A DNA stretch of 43,077 nucleotides, from contig DRKP01000096.1 of assembly GCA_011051715.1 (NCBI GenBank), positions 1 through 43,077 on the forward strand. The letters are read 5' to 3'. Of this stretch, positions 3,235-43,076 are shown piece by piece. This stretch comes from Sedimenticola thiotaurini (GTDB lineage: Bacteria > Pseudomonadota > Gammaproteobacteria > Chromatiales > Chromatiaceae). Numbering within the stretch: position 1 is the stretch's first letter; the number at the start of each line of letters is the position of its first letter. A program made the translations under genes and the position numbers. The notes below the pieces were generated by a model that did not search any database, had not been told where the DNA came from, and saw only the letters and a list, made by a program, of their open reading frames with translations.

Positions 3235-3243
3235 TCTAATCCA

Positions 3244-3334
3244 GGTTCTAGGTTCTAGGTTCTAGGTTCTAGGTTCTAGGTTCTAGGGCCGAGGGCCGAG
3301 GGCCGAGGGCCGAGGGCCGAGGGCCGAGGGCCGA
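3244..3334 (+). repeat. Heptad array: 6x GGTTCTA then 7x GGGCCGA
   Basis: Six perfect GGTTCTA units (3244-3285) pass without a phase break into seven perfect GGGCCGA units (3286-3334). The switch between two different heptamers in the same 7-bp register shows that they belong to one family of the form GGNNCNA. The array begins 9 bp upstream of the moaE start codon. It faces an inverted array at 3419-3512 across about 84 bp of non-repeat DNA. Confidence 0.95.
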
Positions 3335-3418
3335 GAAAAGCATGGCCGCGGACGCCTCTTTTGGGCAAGCGCTGGTTCGCGGCGGGGACGGCGCTCCTGC
3401 AGCCATTCTCCACTCCTG

Positions 3419-3512
3419 TCTTTCCTCGGCCCCGTCTTTCCTCGGCCCCGTCTTTCCTCGGCCCTGTTGTTCCTCGGCCCTGTTGTTCCTCGGCCCTGTC
3501 TTTCCTCGGCCC
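3419..3512 (-). repeat. Heptad array, 16-bp composite units, minus orientation
   Basis: Read on the minus strand, this array is six GGGCCGA units, each followed by GGAAAGA or GGAACAA and then CA or CG, with a strict 16-bp period (7+7+2). The middle heptad varies between units while GGGCCGA is invariant. It is inverted relative to the array at 3244-3334, so the two could pair as a long stem. It ends 14 bp before the moaD stop codon. Confidence 0.95.
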
Positions 3513-3526
3513 TCCTGTCCCAACCC

Positions 3527-16358: not shown

Positions 16359-16380
16359 GTCGTGTCAACCTTTTCTGTTA

Positions 16381-16436
16381 GGTACTAGGTACTAGGTACT
16401 AGGTACTAGGTACTAGGTACTAGGTACTAGGTACTG
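16381..16436 (+). repeat. Heptad array: 7x GGTACTA plus GGTACTG
   Basis: Seven perfect GGTACTA units followed by one GGTACTG fill 56 bp between gcvH and gcvT, inside the glycine-cleavage operon. GGTACTA also appears as the last unit of the mixed array at 39569-39605, tying this array to the GGGCCGA family. I see no convincing inverted partner; a CCCCAACCCCT sequence at the gcvT end of the gap resembles the tail of the array next to moaD. Confidence 0.95.
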
Positions 16437-16555: not shown

Positions 16556-16583
16556 CGTCATTCCGGCGCAGGCCGGAATCCAT
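16556..16583. repeat. dRS3-like palindrome CGTCATTCCGG...CCGGAATCCA
   Basis: A single palindrome with arms ATTCCGGC and GCCGGAAT around a short centre, preceded by CGTC and followed by CCAT. It matches copies at 5149, 25478-25544, 29343 and 32632-32699. The core resembles Neisseria dRS3 (ATTCCC-N8-GGGAAT). It lies 43 bp from the gcvT stop codon. Confidence 0.8.
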
Positions 16584-17754: not shown

Positions 17755-17795
17755 AATAAAAAGGGCGGCGCAGGAGATCCCGTCCCGCGCCGCCC
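17755..17795 (-). terminator. Intrinsic terminator of the glycine riboswitch expression platform
   Basis: On the minus strand a perfect 9-bp GC stem (GGGCGGCGC / GCGCCGCCC, arms 17787-17795 and 17763-17771) with a 15-nt loop is followed by a T-rich run (TTTTTATTT). It lies directly after the second aptamer and about 40 bp before the gcvT start, where a switchable terminator is expected. Glycine binding would be expected to favour read-through, as in known gcvT switches; this direction is inferred from the family. Confidence 0.9.
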
Positions 17796-18000
17796 CTCTG
17801 TCCAAGACCTGAGAGTTTGAGGTCCGGCCTGCGGCCGGAGTCCCCTGCCCCGTCGGTGGATCGCTGTTCGATCGCTCTCCAGAGTCAACCCGGGCCCGGC
17901 GCTGCACCGGCCCCGATCCCCATGGTCCTTTTGCCTGAGCGATTCCGGGCGGTTTGCGCCTTCGGCGCCGGCGCGGGGCCGGCCTCTCCCATGGGGTGGA
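17796..18000 (-). promoter_or_regulatory. Tandem glycine riboswitch
   Basis: Two glycine aptamers lie in tandem upstream of gcvT. Aptamer 1 (about 17918-17996) has a P1 stem CCATGGGG / CCCCATGG, then GGAGAGGCC, GGCGCCGAAGGCGCAAACC and the signature CTCAGGCAAAAGGACC. Aptamer 2 (about 17796-17886) has CTCTGGAGAG, CACCGACGGGGCAGG and ends CTCTCAGGTCTTGGACAGAGG. These match the conserved cores of the glycine riboswitch family. An intrinsic terminator follows directly and a strong promoter precedes it, so the complete control unit is visible. Confidence 0.96.
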
Positions 18001-18015
18001 GGGTTGATTCCGGGG

Positions 18016-18048: not shown

Positions 18049-18090
18049 GGTGAGGGGTGAGGAGTGAGGTGTGAGGAGGTGGGGAGTGGA
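18049..18090 (+). repeat. Degenerate heptad run, GGTGAGG type
   Basis: Six 7-bp units in a row: GGTGAGG twice, then AGTGAGG, TGTGAGG, AGGTGGG and GAGTGGA. The purine-rich composition and 7-bp period resemble the GGNNNNA arrays, but the units end in G rather than A and I treat membership as uncertain. It lies between the divergent gcv promoter and the RND adaptor gene. Confidence 0.55.
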
Positions 18091-25141: not shown

Positions 25142-25169
25142 GGGCCGGGGGCCGGGGGCCGAGGGCCGG
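25142..25169 (+). repeat. Heptad array: GGGCCGG x2, GGGCCGA, GGGCCGG
   Basis: Four heptads in phase, all close variants of GGGCCGA, 28 bp upstream of the ubiH start. The array is the left, G-rich member of an inverted pair whose right member is at 25680-25756. Confidence 0.85.
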
Positions 25170-25462: not shown

Positions 25463-25477
25463 GCCAGTGAACATCCC

Positions 25478-25544
25478 GTCATCCCGGCGGAGGCCGGGAT
25501 CCATTTGGTGATGGGCCTGGATTCCGGCCTCCGCCGGAATGACG
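25478..25544. repeat. Inverted pair of dRS3-like palindromes
   Basis: The 27-bp element at 25478-25504 (CGTCATCCCGG...GGGATCCA) and its inverted copy at 25518-25544 (TGGATTCCGG...GGAATGACG) differ at two positions and are separated by 13 bp. Each half is itself a palindrome, so the unit can form one long hairpin or two small ones. The same arrangement occurs at 32632-32699. Confidence 0.85.
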
Positions 25545-25679
25545 AAGGAAGGCCTGGCCGGGAATGACGAAGGGAGGCCTGGCCGGGTGCCTTCGATGGC
25601 CCCACACGACACGGCCGCCCTCCACCCCCCGACCCGATGAAGCAACGGAGCAGCGGACATCGGGCAACACCCGCCCTCC

Positions 25680-25756
25680 TCTGCCCTCGGTCCTAGGTCC
25701 TAGGTCCTAGGTCCTAGGTCCTAGGTCCTAGGTCCTAGAGCCTAGAGCCTAGGTTA
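25680..25756 (-). repeat. Heptad array rich in GGACCTA, minus orientation
   Basis: Read on the minus strand and in one phase: two GGCTCTA, a run of GGACCTA, then GGACCGA and GGGCAGA. Read on the plus strand the middle appears as seven GGTCCTA. The in-phase GGACCGA and GGGCAGA units at the end identify it as a member of the GGGCCGA family in minus orientation. It pairs with the plus array at 25142-25169 across about 510 bp and ends 21 bp before the pepP stop. Confidence 0.85.
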
Positions 25757-29522: not shown

Positions 29523-30011
29523 ATGGCTGTCAAGAGAGCGAAGAAGAGCATCAGCAAGAAAGGGGTTGCAGGTCGCGGGAAGGTTGCCGCGAAGAAAAAG
29601 GCCACATCGAAGAAGAAGGTGGCGAAGAAGACCGTAAAGAAGAAGGCTGCTCCGAAGAAGAAGGTGGTAAAGAAGACCGTAAAGAAAAAGGCCGCACCAA
29701 AGAAGAAGGTGGCAAAGAAGACCGTAAAGAAAAAGGCCGCACCAAAGAAGAAGGTGGTAAAGAAGACCGTAAAGAAAAAGGCCGCACCAAAGAAGAAGGT
29801 GGTAAAGAAGACCGTAAAGAAAAAGGCCGCACCGAAGAAGAAGGCGGCGAAGAAGAGCGTGAAGAAAAAGGCCGCGCCGAAAAAGAAGGCGGCGAAGAAG
29901 AGCGTGAAGAAAAAGGCCGCGCCGAAAAAGAAGGCGGCGAAGAAGAGCGTAAAGAAAAAGGCCGCGCCGGGAAGGAAGGTGACACCACGCAAGAAACGGT
30001 CACTGAAGTAG
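29523..30011 (+). CDS. Lysine-rich histone H1-like repeat protein
   Basis: A 162-residue, extremely basic protein made almost only of Lys, Ala, Val, Pro, Thr and Ser. After an N-terminal segment (MAVKRAKKSISKKG...), residues 35-154 are eight tandem 15-residue units of the form KKTVKKKAAPKKKVV; the last three have KKSV and end in AA. Such tails occur in bacterial H1-like and AlgP-like DNA-binding proteins and suggest binding to nucleic acid; this is inference. I chose ATG 29523 because GAGGG lies 7 bases upstream; ATG 29508 is an alternative. Repeat copies are nearly identical at DNA level and are less GC-rich than neighbouring genes. Confidence 0.8.
   Translation: MAVKRAKKSISKKGVAGRGKVAAKKKATSKKKVAKKTVKKKAAPKKKVVKKTVKKKAAPKKKVAKKTVKKKAAPKKKVVKKTVKKKAAPKKKVVKKTVKKKAAPKKKAAKKSVKKKAAPKKKAAKKSVKKKAAPKKKAAKKSVKKKAAPGRKVTPRKKRSLK
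29625..29984 (+). repeat. 45-bp tandem coding repeats, eight copies
   Basis: The lysine-rich gene contains eight 45-bp direct repeats, each encoding one 15-residue unit. Central copies are near-identical, differing mostly in the last two codons (GTGGTA versus GTGGCA) and later GTA/GTG and T/S changes. This indicates recent expansion or homogenisation, so copy number is likely to vary between strains. Confidence 0.9.
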
Positions 30012-32560: not shown

Positions 32561-32565
32561 GGACA

Positions 32566-32618
32566 GGGCCGAGGAACTACAGGGCCGAGGGCAGAGGGAC
32601 TACGGGGTAGAGGGCCGA
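32566..32618 (+). repeat. Mixed heptad array after rpiA
   Basis: In order: GGGCCGA, GGAACTA, CA, GGGCCGA, GGGCAGA, GGGACTA, CG, GGGTAGA, GGGCCGA. Every unit is a GGNNNNA heptad and the only interruptions are CA or CG dinucleotides. The variety of units rules out simple slippage of one word. Confidence 0.93.
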
Positions 32619-32631
32619 CACCGTCCCCTTC

Positions 32632-32699
32632 CGTCATTCCGGCGCAGGCCGGAATCCGGCGAACGTTCCCTTTGGATCCCGGCCTGCGCCGGGATGACG
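32632..32699. repeat. Inverted pair of dRS3-like palindromes
   Basis: CGTCATTCCGGCGCAGG...GGAATCC (32632-32657) and the inverted copy TGGATCCCGGCCTGCGCCGGGATGACG (arms 32673-32699) flank 15 bp. The pair sits in the middle of the rpiA-livF gap, inside the inverted heptad arrays. It may act as a bidirectional terminator for the convergent genes, though no T-run is present. Confidence 0.85.
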
Positions 32700-32750
32700 T
32701 GGTGTTCGGATGTCTCTAGAAAAAGCCTTTCAGCTACGGAATATGGCCCC

Positions 32751-32796
32751 TCGGCCCTGTAGTTCCTCTGCTCTGTAGTTCCTCTGCCCTCGGCCC
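32751..32796 (-). repeat. Mixed heptad array before the livF stop
   Basis: Read on the minus strand: GGGCCGA, GGGCAGA, GGAACTA, CA, GAGCAGA, GGAACTA, CA, GGGCCGA, then a degenerate GGGGCCA. It mirrors the array at 32566-32618 and ends 9 bp before the livF stop codon. Confidence 0.93.
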
Positions 32797-36551: not shown

Positions 36552-36558
36552 GAGATCA

Positions 36559-36588
36559 GGGCCGAGGAACTACAGGACCGAGGGCCAA
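36559..36588 (+). repeat. Mixed heptad array upstream of livH
   Basis: GGGCCGA, GGAACTA, CA, GGACCGA, GGGCCAA. It begins 8 bp before the livH start codon (livH is on the minus strand) and is the left member of an inverted pair with 36754-36783. Confidence 0.88.
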
Positions 36589-36753
36589 GGAGCGGTATTT
36601 CATGGGAGGGAAGGCTGTCTTAAGGCCATCGGCACAACCCATCCTGTAGAACAGGAATCCTTTTGTCATGCTCGCATCACCTGGAATACCCAAACGCAAG
36701 AAAGCCCAGGCTGGAGGTCGAGGGGTGAAACCCTCCCCCCGATCCCGGCCCAG

Positions 36754-36783
36754 TAGTTCCTCGGCCCCCGGCCCTGTTGTTAC
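36754..36783 (-). repeat. Heptad array overlapping the livK stop
   Basis: Read on the minus strand: GTAACAA (variant of GGAACAA), CA, GGGCCGG, GGGCCGA, GGAACTA. The first, degenerate heptad contains the TAA stop of livK, so the array abuts the coding end. The about 165 bp between this and the plus array hold a small hairpin (GAGGG/CCCTC near 36719-36734) and nothing else I can name. Confidence 0.8.
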
Positions 36784-39323: not shown

Positions 39324-39568
39324 CAGTTTTGTTAAAAAAAAACCACAGGAATCGATCTTGTTGCCAAAATGATACACTTCTCCCCCCTTTCGGCGGCCAA
39401 TCGCCACTATTTGTCCTGTTTTCAGCCAATTGCCGGCCCTTTGAAGAAGCCACGGGCGCTTCTCACAGGGGATTTTTTACGAACCGAAGGTGGCCTGCCC
39501 GGAACGGAAATCTGAAAGTTGGGGAAAACCCGGGGCGGGAGTGTTGCGGAATAGGTACTTGTTGGGGA

Positions 39569-39605
39569 GGGCCGAGGAACAACAGGGCCGAGGGCCGAGG
39601 TACTA
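39569..39605 (+). repeat. Mixed heptad array: GGGCCGA, GGAACAA, CA, GGGCCGA x2, GGTACTA
   Basis: Five in-phase heptads plus one CA. The array ends in GGTACTA, the same heptad that fills the array at 16381-16436, showing that the two belong to one family. It is inverted relative to 39769-39887; the 163 bp between them show no gene. Confidence 0.92.
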
Positions 39606-39768
39606 TACGATCAGGGAATCAACGTCACAGGTGATTGGCTCGGTGCCTCACCTGGGATATCGCCATGGTTGTCTATCACAATCTCACATGGCCTAGGATG
39701 TCGAATCATCCAACCGCTGGTCGACTCGAACCTCTCCACCGTCTCTTTCCACCCGCCACTCCCAGCCC

Positions 39769-39887
39769 TCGGCCCTGTAGTTCCTCGGCCCTGTAGTTCC
39801 TCGGCCCTGTAGTTCCTCGGCCCTGTAGTTCCTCGGCCCTGTAGTTCCTCGGCCCTGTAGTTCCTCGGCCCTGTAGTTCCTCGGCCC
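39769..39887 (-). repeat. 16-bp composite heptad array, 7.5 copies
   Basis: Plus strand: TCGGCCCTGTAGTTCC repeated seven times with a perfect 16-bp period, plus a final TCGGCCCTG. On the minus strand each unit is GGGCCGA GGAACTA CA. Copies are identical, which indicates recent expansion. The array ends 4 bp before the tRNA terminator. Confidence 0.97.
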
Positions 39888-39890
39888 TGC

Positions 39891-39929: not shown

Positions 39930-40005
39930 TGGCTGGGATGGTAGGGATCGAACCTACAACCTACGGAGTCAGAGTCCGTCGCTCTGCCAGTTGAGCTACA
40001 TCCCA
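39930..40005 (-). tRNA. tRNA-Gln (anticodon CTG)
   Basis: A 76-nt tRNA on the minus strand. Acceptor TGGGATG/CATCCCA with the U1-A72 pair typical of glutamine tRNAs, D-arm GCTC...GAGC, anticodon stem ACGGA/TCCGT with loop CTCTGAC (anticodon CTG, reads CAG), T-arm GTAGG-TTCGATC-CCTAC, and an encoded CCA end. An open frame crossing it on the same strand (39611-40006) is a known type of false gene. Confidence 0.95.
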
Positions 40006-40011
40006 ATGTCA

Positions 40012-40041
40012 GGGCCGAGGGCCGAGGAAAAACAGGGCCGA
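40012..40041 (+). repeat. Heptad array: GGGCCGA x2, GGAAAAA, CA, GGGCCGA
   Basis: The left member of the inverted pair that encloses the four-helix-bundle gene. It begins 6 bp upstream of the tRNA 5' end. Confidence 0.9.
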
Positions 40042-40097
40042 TGCTAACTATATGTTAACACCTCCTTTTCCTGTCCCGGTTTCCGGCTTTGTAATTT

Positions 40098-40448
40098 CTA
40101 GGTCCTGTCCTGAATGCTGTTTATCAGGGCAAACAGCATTTTCGAAATCTGCCTTACCTCGTTCGCTTTTTCAAGTGCATCCGCTCTGTCGATGAAGCCG
40201 GCTTCGCTGCCAATCAACAACTGGGTCCATGCCTCGGCCGCCGAACCTCTTGCTATCTGGAGGAATCGTACTCGCTCCCTGCTTCCAACCCGCTGATATC
40301 CCTCGGCGATGTTCGAGGCAATGGAGAGCGCCGAGCGCCCAAGTTGGTCCTTGAATCCGTGATTGCGGCAGTCGGCCAACAATCCGTAAACATCTACTGA
40401 AAGCCGACAGGCACGCCTCCATACCTGCAGGTTCTCCAGAGCATCCAT
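40098..40448 (-). CDS. Four-helix-bundle protein (S23 / 23S rRNA intervening-sequence family)
   Basis: A 116-residue helical protein. LQVWRRACRLSVDVYGLLAD near the start, the LGRSALSIASNIAEGYQR motif (about residues 38-55) and FLQIARGSAAEAWTQLLIG are diagnostic of the S23 family, first found in 23S rRNA intervening sequences and related to Avd of diversity-generating retroelements. No reverse transcriptase is in the window. The cellular role is unknown. GGAG lies 4 bases before the ATG. The gene has its own inverted heptad arrays on both sides (40012-40041 and 40478-40507), separating it from the tRNA and from rpsI. Confidence 0.9.
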   Translation of the reverse strand: MDALENLQVWRRACRLSVDVYGLLADCRNHGFKDQLGRSALSIASNIAEGYQRVGSRERVRFLQIARGSAAEAWTQLLIGSEAGFIDRADALEKANEVRQISKMLFALINSIQDRT

Positions 40449-40477
40449 GCTCTCCGCTCCCTGATAAAGGCCAGTCC

Positions 40478-40507
40478 TCGGCCCTCGGCCCTGTTTTTCC
40501 TGGGCCC
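40478..40507 (-). repeat. Heptad array, minus orientation, beyond the four-helix-bundle gene
   Basis: On the minus strand: GGGCCCA, GGAAAAA, CA, GGGCCGA, GGGCCGA. It mirrors the left array at 40012-40041, even sharing the rare GGAAAAA unit in the same neighbourhood, so the two look like copies of one array in inverted orientation. Confidence 0.9.
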
Positions 40508-40508
40508 T

Positions 40509-41834: not shown

Positions 41835-43076
41835 GTGACCCCTGAAGAGCTCAGCAAAGAGGCGGACCGGTGCGTCAAGTGTGGCCTCTGCCTGCCCCAT
41901 TGCCCCACCTATATCCTGACCCGGGACGAAGGGGATGCGCCGCGGGGCCGGATCGCCCTGATCCAGGGCTTCGTCGACGGCTCCCTCGACTCACCGCGCC
42001 TGATCCGGCACCTGGAGCGCTGCCTCGGCTGCCGCCGCTGTGAGACGGCCTGCCCCTCGGGGGTGCGCTATGGCCGCATCATCGATGCCGCCCGTGCCCT
42101 GGGCGCCAGGCCCGGCGGCAGCGGACGCCGGCGGCTGCTGCGGCTGCTGACCCGGCTCCCCTACCACAGGTCGATGCCGCGGCTGTTGCGCTGGTACCGA
42201 ACGGGGATGGTCCGGGGGCTGATGCGCGGGCTGGTCGGGCAGCGGTTGCGCCGGCTGGACGACATGCTGCCACCGGAGCCACCCGCTCCGGCCCCGAGCG
42301 GGGAGACCGGGGCGACGGGCCAGGTCGCCAGGGTCGCCCTGTTCACCGGTTGCGTCGGCCGCATCGCCGACCGGGGCGCCCTGGAGGCGGCAGAGCGGGT
42401 CCTCGCCAGCCTCGGCATCACCACCCTGGTCCCCGAGGGCCAGGGGTGCTGCGGCGCCATGCACCAGCACAACGGCTTCCCCGACGACGCCCTGGCGCTG
42501 GCCCGTGCCAATGGCCGGGCCTTTGCCGCCCTGGATGTGGACGCGGTGCTCTACCTGGCCAGCGGCTGCGGCACCCAGCTGCAGGCCTATGGATCGATGG
42601 CGGTGGAACTGGGCGCACCGCCGCTGGAGATCAGCCGGTATCTGGAGCAGTCCGGCCTGGCCGGCTCCCTGCGCCTGGCCGCCCTGGACGGTACCGTGGC
42701 GGTCCACACCCCCTGCACCCTGCGTTACCCGCTCGGCGGGTCCCAATGGCCGCTCCGTCTGTTGCAGCGGATCCCGGGAATCACGCTGAAACCGCTGCCC
42801 GACCTGGGGTGCTGCGGCGCGGCGGGCACCCAGGTGCTCACCCAGCCCGGACTGGCGGACCGGCTGCGGGAGACGATCCTGACAAGGATCCTGGAACTCC
42901 GCCCCCGCCTGCTGGTCACCAGCAACACCGGCTGTGCCATGCACCTGCGCGCGGGACTGAAGCAGAAGGGCAGCGCCATCGAGGTACTGCATCCGATCGA
43001 GGTGATTGAGCGGCAGTTGAAAGGGCCTAGGGGCGAGGGCCGAGGGCCGAGGAAAGACAGGGCCGAGTCGGGGTAG
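41835..43076 (+). CDS. GlcF-like glycolate oxidase iron-sulfur subunit
   Basis: A 413-codon Fe-S protein. Two 4Fe-4S motifs are near the N terminus (CVKCGLCLPHCP at 13-24 and CLGCRRCETACP at about 63-74). Two CCG domains follow, with GCCGAMHQHNG and GCCGAAGTQVL. This is the layout of GlcF, which passes electrons from GlcDE; glcD and glcE are not in the window. The natural end is probably near residue 396 (HPIEVIERQLK). The last about 17 codons are translated heptad repeat, and the stop TAG lies in a GGGTAGA heptad at the window edge. The GTG start lacks a Shine-Dalgarno. Confidence 0.85.
   Translation: MTPEELSKEADRCVKCGLCLPHCPTYILTRDEGDAPRGRIALIQGFVDGSLDSPRLIRHLERCLGCRRCETACPSGVRYGRIIDAARALGARPGGSGRRRLLRLLTRLPYHRSMPRLLRWYRTGMVRGLMRGLVGQRLRRLDDMLPPEPPAPAPSGETGATGQVARVALFTGCVGRIADRGALEAAERVLASLGITTLVPEGQGCCGAMHQHNGFPDDALALARANGRAFAALDVDAVLYLASGCGTQLQAYGSMAVELGAPPLEISRYLEQSGLAGSLRLAALDGTVAVHTPCTLRYPLGGSQWPLRLLQRIPGITLKPLPDLGCCGAAGTQVLTQPGLADRLRETILTRILELRPRLLVTSNTGCAMHLRAGLKQKGSAIEVLHPIEVIERQLKGPRGEGRGPRKDRAESG

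What the first reader, a model, noticed from the sequence alone, without database searches (positions are those of the whole stretch)
32566..32796. Arrays occur as inverted pairs with constant polarity, G-rich strand always pointing inward
Six gaps hold two arrays: 3244/3419, 25142/25680, 32566/32751, 36559/36754, 39569/39769 and 40012/40478. In all six the left array is G-rich on the plus strand and the right array C-rich. The direction of flanking genes differs (convergent here, codirectional in the liv and moa cases), so transcription does not explain it. Each pair bounds 75-510 bp of unrelated sequence, sometimes right up to the stop codons. This resembles terminal inverted repeats of a small element, or a barrier structure, more than independent microsatellites.
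Basis: partly seen in the sequence, partly recalled or inferred. Interest (0 to 1): 0.72.

Follow-up and report, generated by a model that had tools for sequence, protein, structure and literature searches.

The report
Inward-facing heptamer arrays bounding IVP cassettes
Pairs of short tandem repeats that always face each other in the gaps between genes turn out to be the ends of a small element, found across many groups of bacteria, that often carries a gene for a four-helix-bundle ("23S rRNA intervening sequence") protein, which may explain why seven-base repeats are so common between bacterial genes.

Summary
All six gaps carry the pairs, and in 1.39 Mb of this genome neighbouring arrays face inward 16 times and outward once (the one outward pair brackets a tRNA gene lying between two pairs). 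One pair in the window (40011-40508) encloses an IVP gene (PF05635/TIGR02436), and the only other IVP gene in the genome sits in such a pair too. IVP genes from many phyla show the same build: inverted arrays with a period of exactly 7, the C-poor, G-richer strand pointing inward (44 against 3), 73 of 78 named loci with significantly inverted flanks. The seven-base word is private to each locus or genome but matches between the two arms: period, complementarity and polarity are kept, sequence is free. GxxExxY nuclease genes sit in similar brackets of period 8-10. The title gap is a cargo-less pair with a REP palindrome inside; a related genus has a pair there with another word. In another genus the nuoC-nuoD gap is filled in 6 of 29 genomes and empty in 21. 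Inverted pairs were published for Xanthomonas (2015); I found no report of the cargo link. How it moves is unknown.

The parts
32563..32615 (+). left array of the title pair, AGGGCCG / AGGAACTAC units, starts a few bp after the rpiA stop
32632..32699 (.). REP-like palindrome (GTCATTCCGGCGCAGGCCGGAATCC...) enclosed by the title pair; core found 15 times in the sampled genome
32749..32798 (-). right array of the title pair, reverse complement of the same units, ends a few bp before the 3' end of livF
3243..3335 (+). left array: AGGTTCT x6 (outer) then AGGGCCG x7 (inner)
3415..3513 (-). right array, 16-mer CCTGTCTTTCCTCGGC x6
25142..25169 (+). left array GGGCCGG x4
25678..25754 (-). right array: inner CTCTGCCCTCGG relic, outer CCTAGGT x10
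36558..36590 (+). left array, degenerate AGGGCCG/AGGAACTAC
36750..36782 (-). right array, degenerate
39568..39602 (+). left array AGGGCCGAGGAACAACAGGGCCGAGGGCCGAGG
39767..39889 (-). right array CCTCGGCCCTGTAGTT x7.7, ends 43 bp before the tRNA gene (39933-40005, -)
40011..40043 (+). left array of the IVP cassette
40098..40448 (-). IVP (four-helix-bundle) gene, 116 aa; PF05635 E 6.8e-27, TIGR02436 E 8.3e-28
40476..40508 (-). right array of the IVP cassette, followed by the rpsI 3' end
43022..43068 (+). array at the window edge, AGGGCCG type; related genus has a CAAGTTA array after the same gene
16379..16435 (+). unpaired array TAGGTAC x8
18049..18088 (+). unpaired array GTGAGGA x5, degenerate

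Best explanation
The pairs are the ends of one class of small intergenic element, here called an IVP cassette. Its ends are two inverted tandem arrays of a seven-base word; the full form carries an IVP gene about 30 bp inside each array, and most copies in this genome, the title gap included, are cargo-less. SHOWN: period 7, arm complementarity and strand polarity are kept while the word is free; copies sit tight against gene ends; filled and clean empty sites coexist among close relatives; the same gap in related genera can hold a pair with a different word. INFERRED: (1) the element enters at gene ends, with the IVP protein, a homologue of the DGR accessory protein Avd, acting on the hairpin the arms can form; (2) the free word drifts by point mutation and slippage, and copying between the arms of the hairpin (or between loci) keeps the arms matched, so a genome's word is replaced over time; (3) cargo is readily lost, leaving paired or single arrays. 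How it moves is not known; no reverse transcriptase of the RVT_1 family is found in the genome.
For: Both IVP genes of the genome lie in inward array pairs. First IVP set: 53 loci, mean period-7 score 15 in each flank against about 4 for other periods from 4 to 13, and inverted flanks above the 95% null in 42/53. Second set: 80 named loci from Bacteroidota, Clostridia, Omnitrophota, Treponema, CPR, Verrucomicrobiales, Elusimicrobia and others, inverted flanks above the 95% null in 73/78. Pooled: 57 loci with arrays on both sides, G..C 44, C..G 3 (p=2.5e-10); arms share 5.8 of 7 word positions within a locus v 3.7 between loci; 99 different words of 114. Inner array edge to the IVP domain: median 34 bp. 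Genome-wide word: AGGGCCG type here, CAAGTTA in G245, backward-pattern control 0 in both. Same gaps, different words: rpiA-livF (title gap), IVP-rpsI, porin-upstream, after gene 41835-43076, and L358/L344. The rpsI-slot IVPs of three genera are one clade (support 99). A relic of the AGGAAC-ACAGG-CCGAGGGCA word lies inside CAAGTTA arrays in G245. nuoC-nuoD gap: 6 filled, 21 empty of 29 congeners, arrays starting on the nuoC stop codon, filled genomes having empty near relatives. Arms fold: title gap -153.6 kcal/mol, z -9.9 (the enclosed palindrome adds to this).
Against: Most arrays in this genome have no cargo (2 IVP genes in the whole genome v 78 arrays in 41% of it), and some related genomes without a detected IVP gene have arrays (G224, G210, G246). 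Cargo-less pairs could therefore be older than, or independent of, IVP, which would then be a passenger. No target duplication and no mobilising enzyme were found. Several mates in this genome have different words. About 10 of 57 IVP pairs have mixed polarity.
Confidence: 0.6

Rival explanations
1. Ordinary MITE: arms are terminal inverted repeats recognised by a transposase acting in trans; IVP is cargo.
For: Inverted ends, small size, filled and empty sites, copies with and without a gene.
Against: End sequences are not conserved within or between genomes, mates differ in word in several pairs, no target duplication, one Y1 transposase with an internal stop is the only RAYT-like gene found.
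Confidence: 0.12
2. Slippage microsatellites seeded independently at gene ends; polarity comes from selection on transcripts (G-rich RNA or C-poor strand after stop codons), and IVP cassettes simply land in them.
For: Arrays abut stop codons; Rehm et al. 2015 (PMC4692102) report the same position rule for GGGAATC in Xanthomonas; outer and inner copies are equally degenerate; several words in this genome differ by single substitutions.
Against: Arms match in word within a locus; the same build surrounds IVP genes across phyla with a spacing of about 34 bp; empty sites lack both arrays and cargo together; polarity is kept next to gene starts as well as gene ends.
Confidence: 0.17
3. Telomere-like 3' end addition: a templated polymerase adds the word to both ends of a break, so the G-rich 3' strand always points inward.
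For: Polarity is exactly that geometry; the word is genome-wide and changes between genera; the period is constant.
Against: No gradient of degeneracy from outer to inner copies (42 v 45 of 104 arrays); no RVT_1 gene in a 99.99% complete genome; the relic word in G245 lies inside, not outside, the newer arrays.
Confidence: 0.05
4. Chromosome barrier or terminator structure maintained by a host protein that binds heptamer arrays; IVP unrelated.
For: Strong hairpins at gene ends; slots shared between genera in about 5 of 10 testable cases.
Against: Most orthologous gaps in related genera are empty, and 21 of 29 congeners lack the nuo pair, so no single site is needed.
Confidence: 0.06

Closest known systems
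GGGAATC heptamer arrays of Xanthomonas and GGGGA(C/T)T arrays of Nostoc (Rehm et al. 2015, PMC4692102)
   Same: Period 7, intergenic, within 50 bp of or overlapping stop codons; 70-75 convergent pairs in Xanthomonas, always one on each strand; conserved slots with variable length.
   Different: Treated as G-quadruplex repeats of one word; in the passages read, cargo, other words and the wider build were not described. Many words here have no G-run.
Intervening sequences (IVS) in 23S rRNA genes that encode IVP (PF05635)
   Same: Same protein family; inserted segments occur with and without an ORF (PMC11270868 for CPR rRNA genes); inverted ends forming a stem (from general knowledge).
   Different: Here between protein genes, with tandem heptamer ends; whether rRNA IVS ends are heptamer arrays was not tested.
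Cyanobacterial STRR heptanucleotides (from memory) and the TAACTGA repeats of Beggiatoaceae (PMC4679880)
   Same: Intergenic heptamer arrays, many per genome.
   Different: TAACTGA is reported as direct repeats, mainly before start codons; only one inverted case.
MITEs, REP/BIME elements
   Same: Small, intergenic, inverted ends.
   Different: Those have a conserved end sequence; here period and polarity are conserved and the sequence is free.
Foldback elements of Drosophila (from memory)
   Same: Inverted ends made of tandem repeats.
   Different: Longer repeat units, eukaryotic, conserved repeat sequence.

Membership tests
IVP / four-helix-bundle protein family | match to PF05635 and TIGR02436 above curated cut-offs | tested here: met
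   94.2 bits v 33.8 and 96.8 v 24; solved relatives 2gsc and 2rld
23S rRNA IVS | insertion inside an rRNA gene | tested here: not met
   window cassette lies between rpsI and a tRNA gene
23S rRNA IVS | inverted ends that pair into a stem | tested here: met
   (z -9.9 and -3.8)
MITE / IS | conserved terminal inverted repeat sequence | tested here: not met
   108 distinct words in 152 arrays
MITE / IS | target-site duplication | tested here: inconclusive
   none seen in six filled/empty comparisons at nuoC-nuoD, but no pair is recent enough to be sure
MITE / IS | presence/absence polymorphism with clean empty sites | tested here: met
Xanthomonas-type inverted heptamer repeats | period 7, convergent pairs, close to gene ends | tested here: met
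   word differs
REP/BIME | palindromic unit of 20-40 bp | tested here: not met
   the arrays are tandem repeats, not palindromes; a REP lies inside the title pair but is a separate repeat
Telomere-like repeats | directional addition by a reverse transcriptase | tested here: not met

The most novel reading that the evidence does not exclude
A pan-bacterial class of mobile element whose ends are defined by repeat period, arm complementarity and strand polarity rather than by sequence, with the period going with the cargo protein (7 for IVP, 8-10 for GxxExxY nucleases), and which accounts for much of the long-known excess of heptamer repeats in bacterial intergenic DNA.
Probability: 0.35. Interest if true: 0.88.

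Novelty: new variant of a known kind. Interest (0 to 1): 0.72.

Why it matters
Heptamer excess between bacterial genes has been put down to polymerase slippage or G-quadruplexes, and IVP proteins are a large family of unknown function. Tying the two together gives a testable origin for the repeats, a candidate target (the array hairpin) for IVP proteins, and possibly a kind of mobile element that sequence-based searches miss because its ends have no consensus.

Tried and rejected
Telomere-like growth: no outer-to-inner gradient, no RVT_1. Stop-codon-carrying words as the reason for polarity: 56% of inward words hold a stop v 52% of shuffled words, not significant, although the words at the nuoC slot do start on the stop codon. 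Purine polarity: weaker than G/C polarity (35 RY v 6 YR). Array density in family genomes with and without IVP at two loci was too sparse to decide dependence on IVP. Literature searches for IVP, PF05635, GxxExxY and heptamer repeats found no report of the link; subscription papers are mostly not covered.

Full report
OBSERVATION. In every one the left array is G-rich on the + strand and the right C-rich. In 1.39 Mb of the genome (41%) 78 arrays of period 7, 16 or 23 were found; neighbours 700 bp or less apart face inward 16 times and outward once. The outward case is 39767-39889 against 40011-40027, the two arrays that bracket the tRNA gene between two pairs. Period 7 is far above the control periods 4, 5, 8, 10, 11 and 13 (52 runs v 3-9 in the first 1.095 Mb). 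Singles exist as well, three of them in the window.

WHAT IS INSIDE. The pair 40011-40508 holds an IVP gene on the minus strand (40098-40448; PF05635, TIGR02436). The genome has one more IVP gene (C82), and it is bounded by GGTGAGG and CCTCACT arrays in the same polarity. Its single GxxExxY (PF13366) gene is bounded by CACAGAG-type 9-mers, again inverted. The title pair holds no gene but a REP-like palindrome.

GENERALITY. IVP loci were gathered from 200 genomes of the phylum and 57 of the family and from named genomes of many phyla. In the first set the mean period-7 score is 15 in both flanks against about 4 for every other period from 4 to 13. In the second set 73 of 78 loci have flanks that are inverted repeats above the 95% null. 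Of 57 loci with clear arrays on both sides, 44 are G..C and 3 are C..G. Words are nearly all different between loci (99 of 114) but agree between the two arms of a locus (5.8 of 7 positions v 3.7 between loci). The inner edge of the array is a median of 34 bp from the IVP domain. There is a weak shared TAGNNAG tendency. For 30 GxxExxY loci, 24 have inverted flanks above the highest same-locus control (the cross-locus null is wide because these words resemble each other), with repeat period 8-10, not 7. These sets include related genomes, so the counts are not all independent.

SLOTS AND WORDS. Around rpsI, 30 genera of the family were compared: most have a short empty gap between rpsI and the tRNA gene; G000, G245 and G219 have the cassette. 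Their IVPs form one clade (support 99), so this insertion is probably shared by descent, yet the words differ: AGGGCCG type in G000 and G219, AAGTTAC in G245. In the title gap (rpiA-livF) G245 has an inverted CAAGTTA pair around a core of about 20 bp, and G210 a degenerate left remnant. CAAGTTA is the word of G245 genome-wide. About five of ten testable slots are shared between G000 and G245, always with different words. In one G245 gap a relic of the G000-type word lies between the newer CAAGTTA arrays. The word is thus replaced while the slot, the period and the polarity stay.

PRESENCE AND ABSENCE. In another genus the nuoC-nuoD gap was read in 29 genomes with nuoD about 96-100% identical to the query. 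Six hold an IVP cassette (words TGAGTAG or TGAATGG, the first unit overlapping the nuoC stop codon), 21 are empty with gaps of a few bases, two hold other small ORFs. Filled genomes have empty near relatives on the nuoD tree, which needs several gains or losses. Recombination of the region among strains could contribute. No target duplication is visible.

HOW IT MAY WORK. The arms can pair into a very stable hairpin. The IVP family is homologous to Avd, the accessory protein of diversity-generating retroelements (PMC10053308). I infer that IVP acts on its own array hairpin and that arm matching is kept by copying between arms or loci while slippage and mutation change the word. The genome has no RVT_1 gene and arrays show no growth gradient, which argues against reverse-transcriptase models here. 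The way the element moves is open.

COMPARISON. The solved IVP structure 2gsc is a Xanthomonas campestris protein (XCC0516), and an IVP locus with the word CGGGAAT was found here (L112). What I did not find in the literature is the link to IVP cargo, the freedom of the word, the tie between cargo and period, and the spread over phyla.

LIMITS. Gene calls in the sampled genome are home-made. Only 41% of the genome was sampled. The link between cargo-less pairs and IVP rests on shared words, polarity and period. Array detection thresholds are mine, though controls used the same thresholds.

Noticed in passing
L021 18895-19465: The single GxxExxY (PF13366) gene of this genome is bracketed by CACAGAG 9-mers and their inverse; gene-free copies of this bracket occur several times in L046, L055 and L056.
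   Followed up: partly
L046 11110-11530: Three near-identical gene-free CACAGAG..CTCTGTG units of about 180 bp in tandem.
   Followed up: no
32632-32699, 16556-16580, 25477-25544: REP-like palindrome GTCATTCCGGCGCAGGCCGGAATCC and variants; 15 exact copies in 1.39 Mb.
   Followed up: partly
L390 and L396, nuoC-nuoD gap: The same nuoC-nuoD gap holds unrelated small ORFs in two congeners, so it seems a tolerant insertion slot.
   Followed up: no
17788-18001: Tandem glycine riboswitch aptamers on the minus strand; a GTGAGGA array lies just upstream.
   Followed up: no
29592-29981: 45-bp tandem repeat AAGAAAAAGGCCGCACCGAAGAAG..., probably a lysine/alanine-rich protein tail.
   Followed up: no
contig ends of G000 and G245: Several contigs break inside the arrays (for example C35 and C472 of G245), so short-read assemblies undercount them.
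   Followed up: partly
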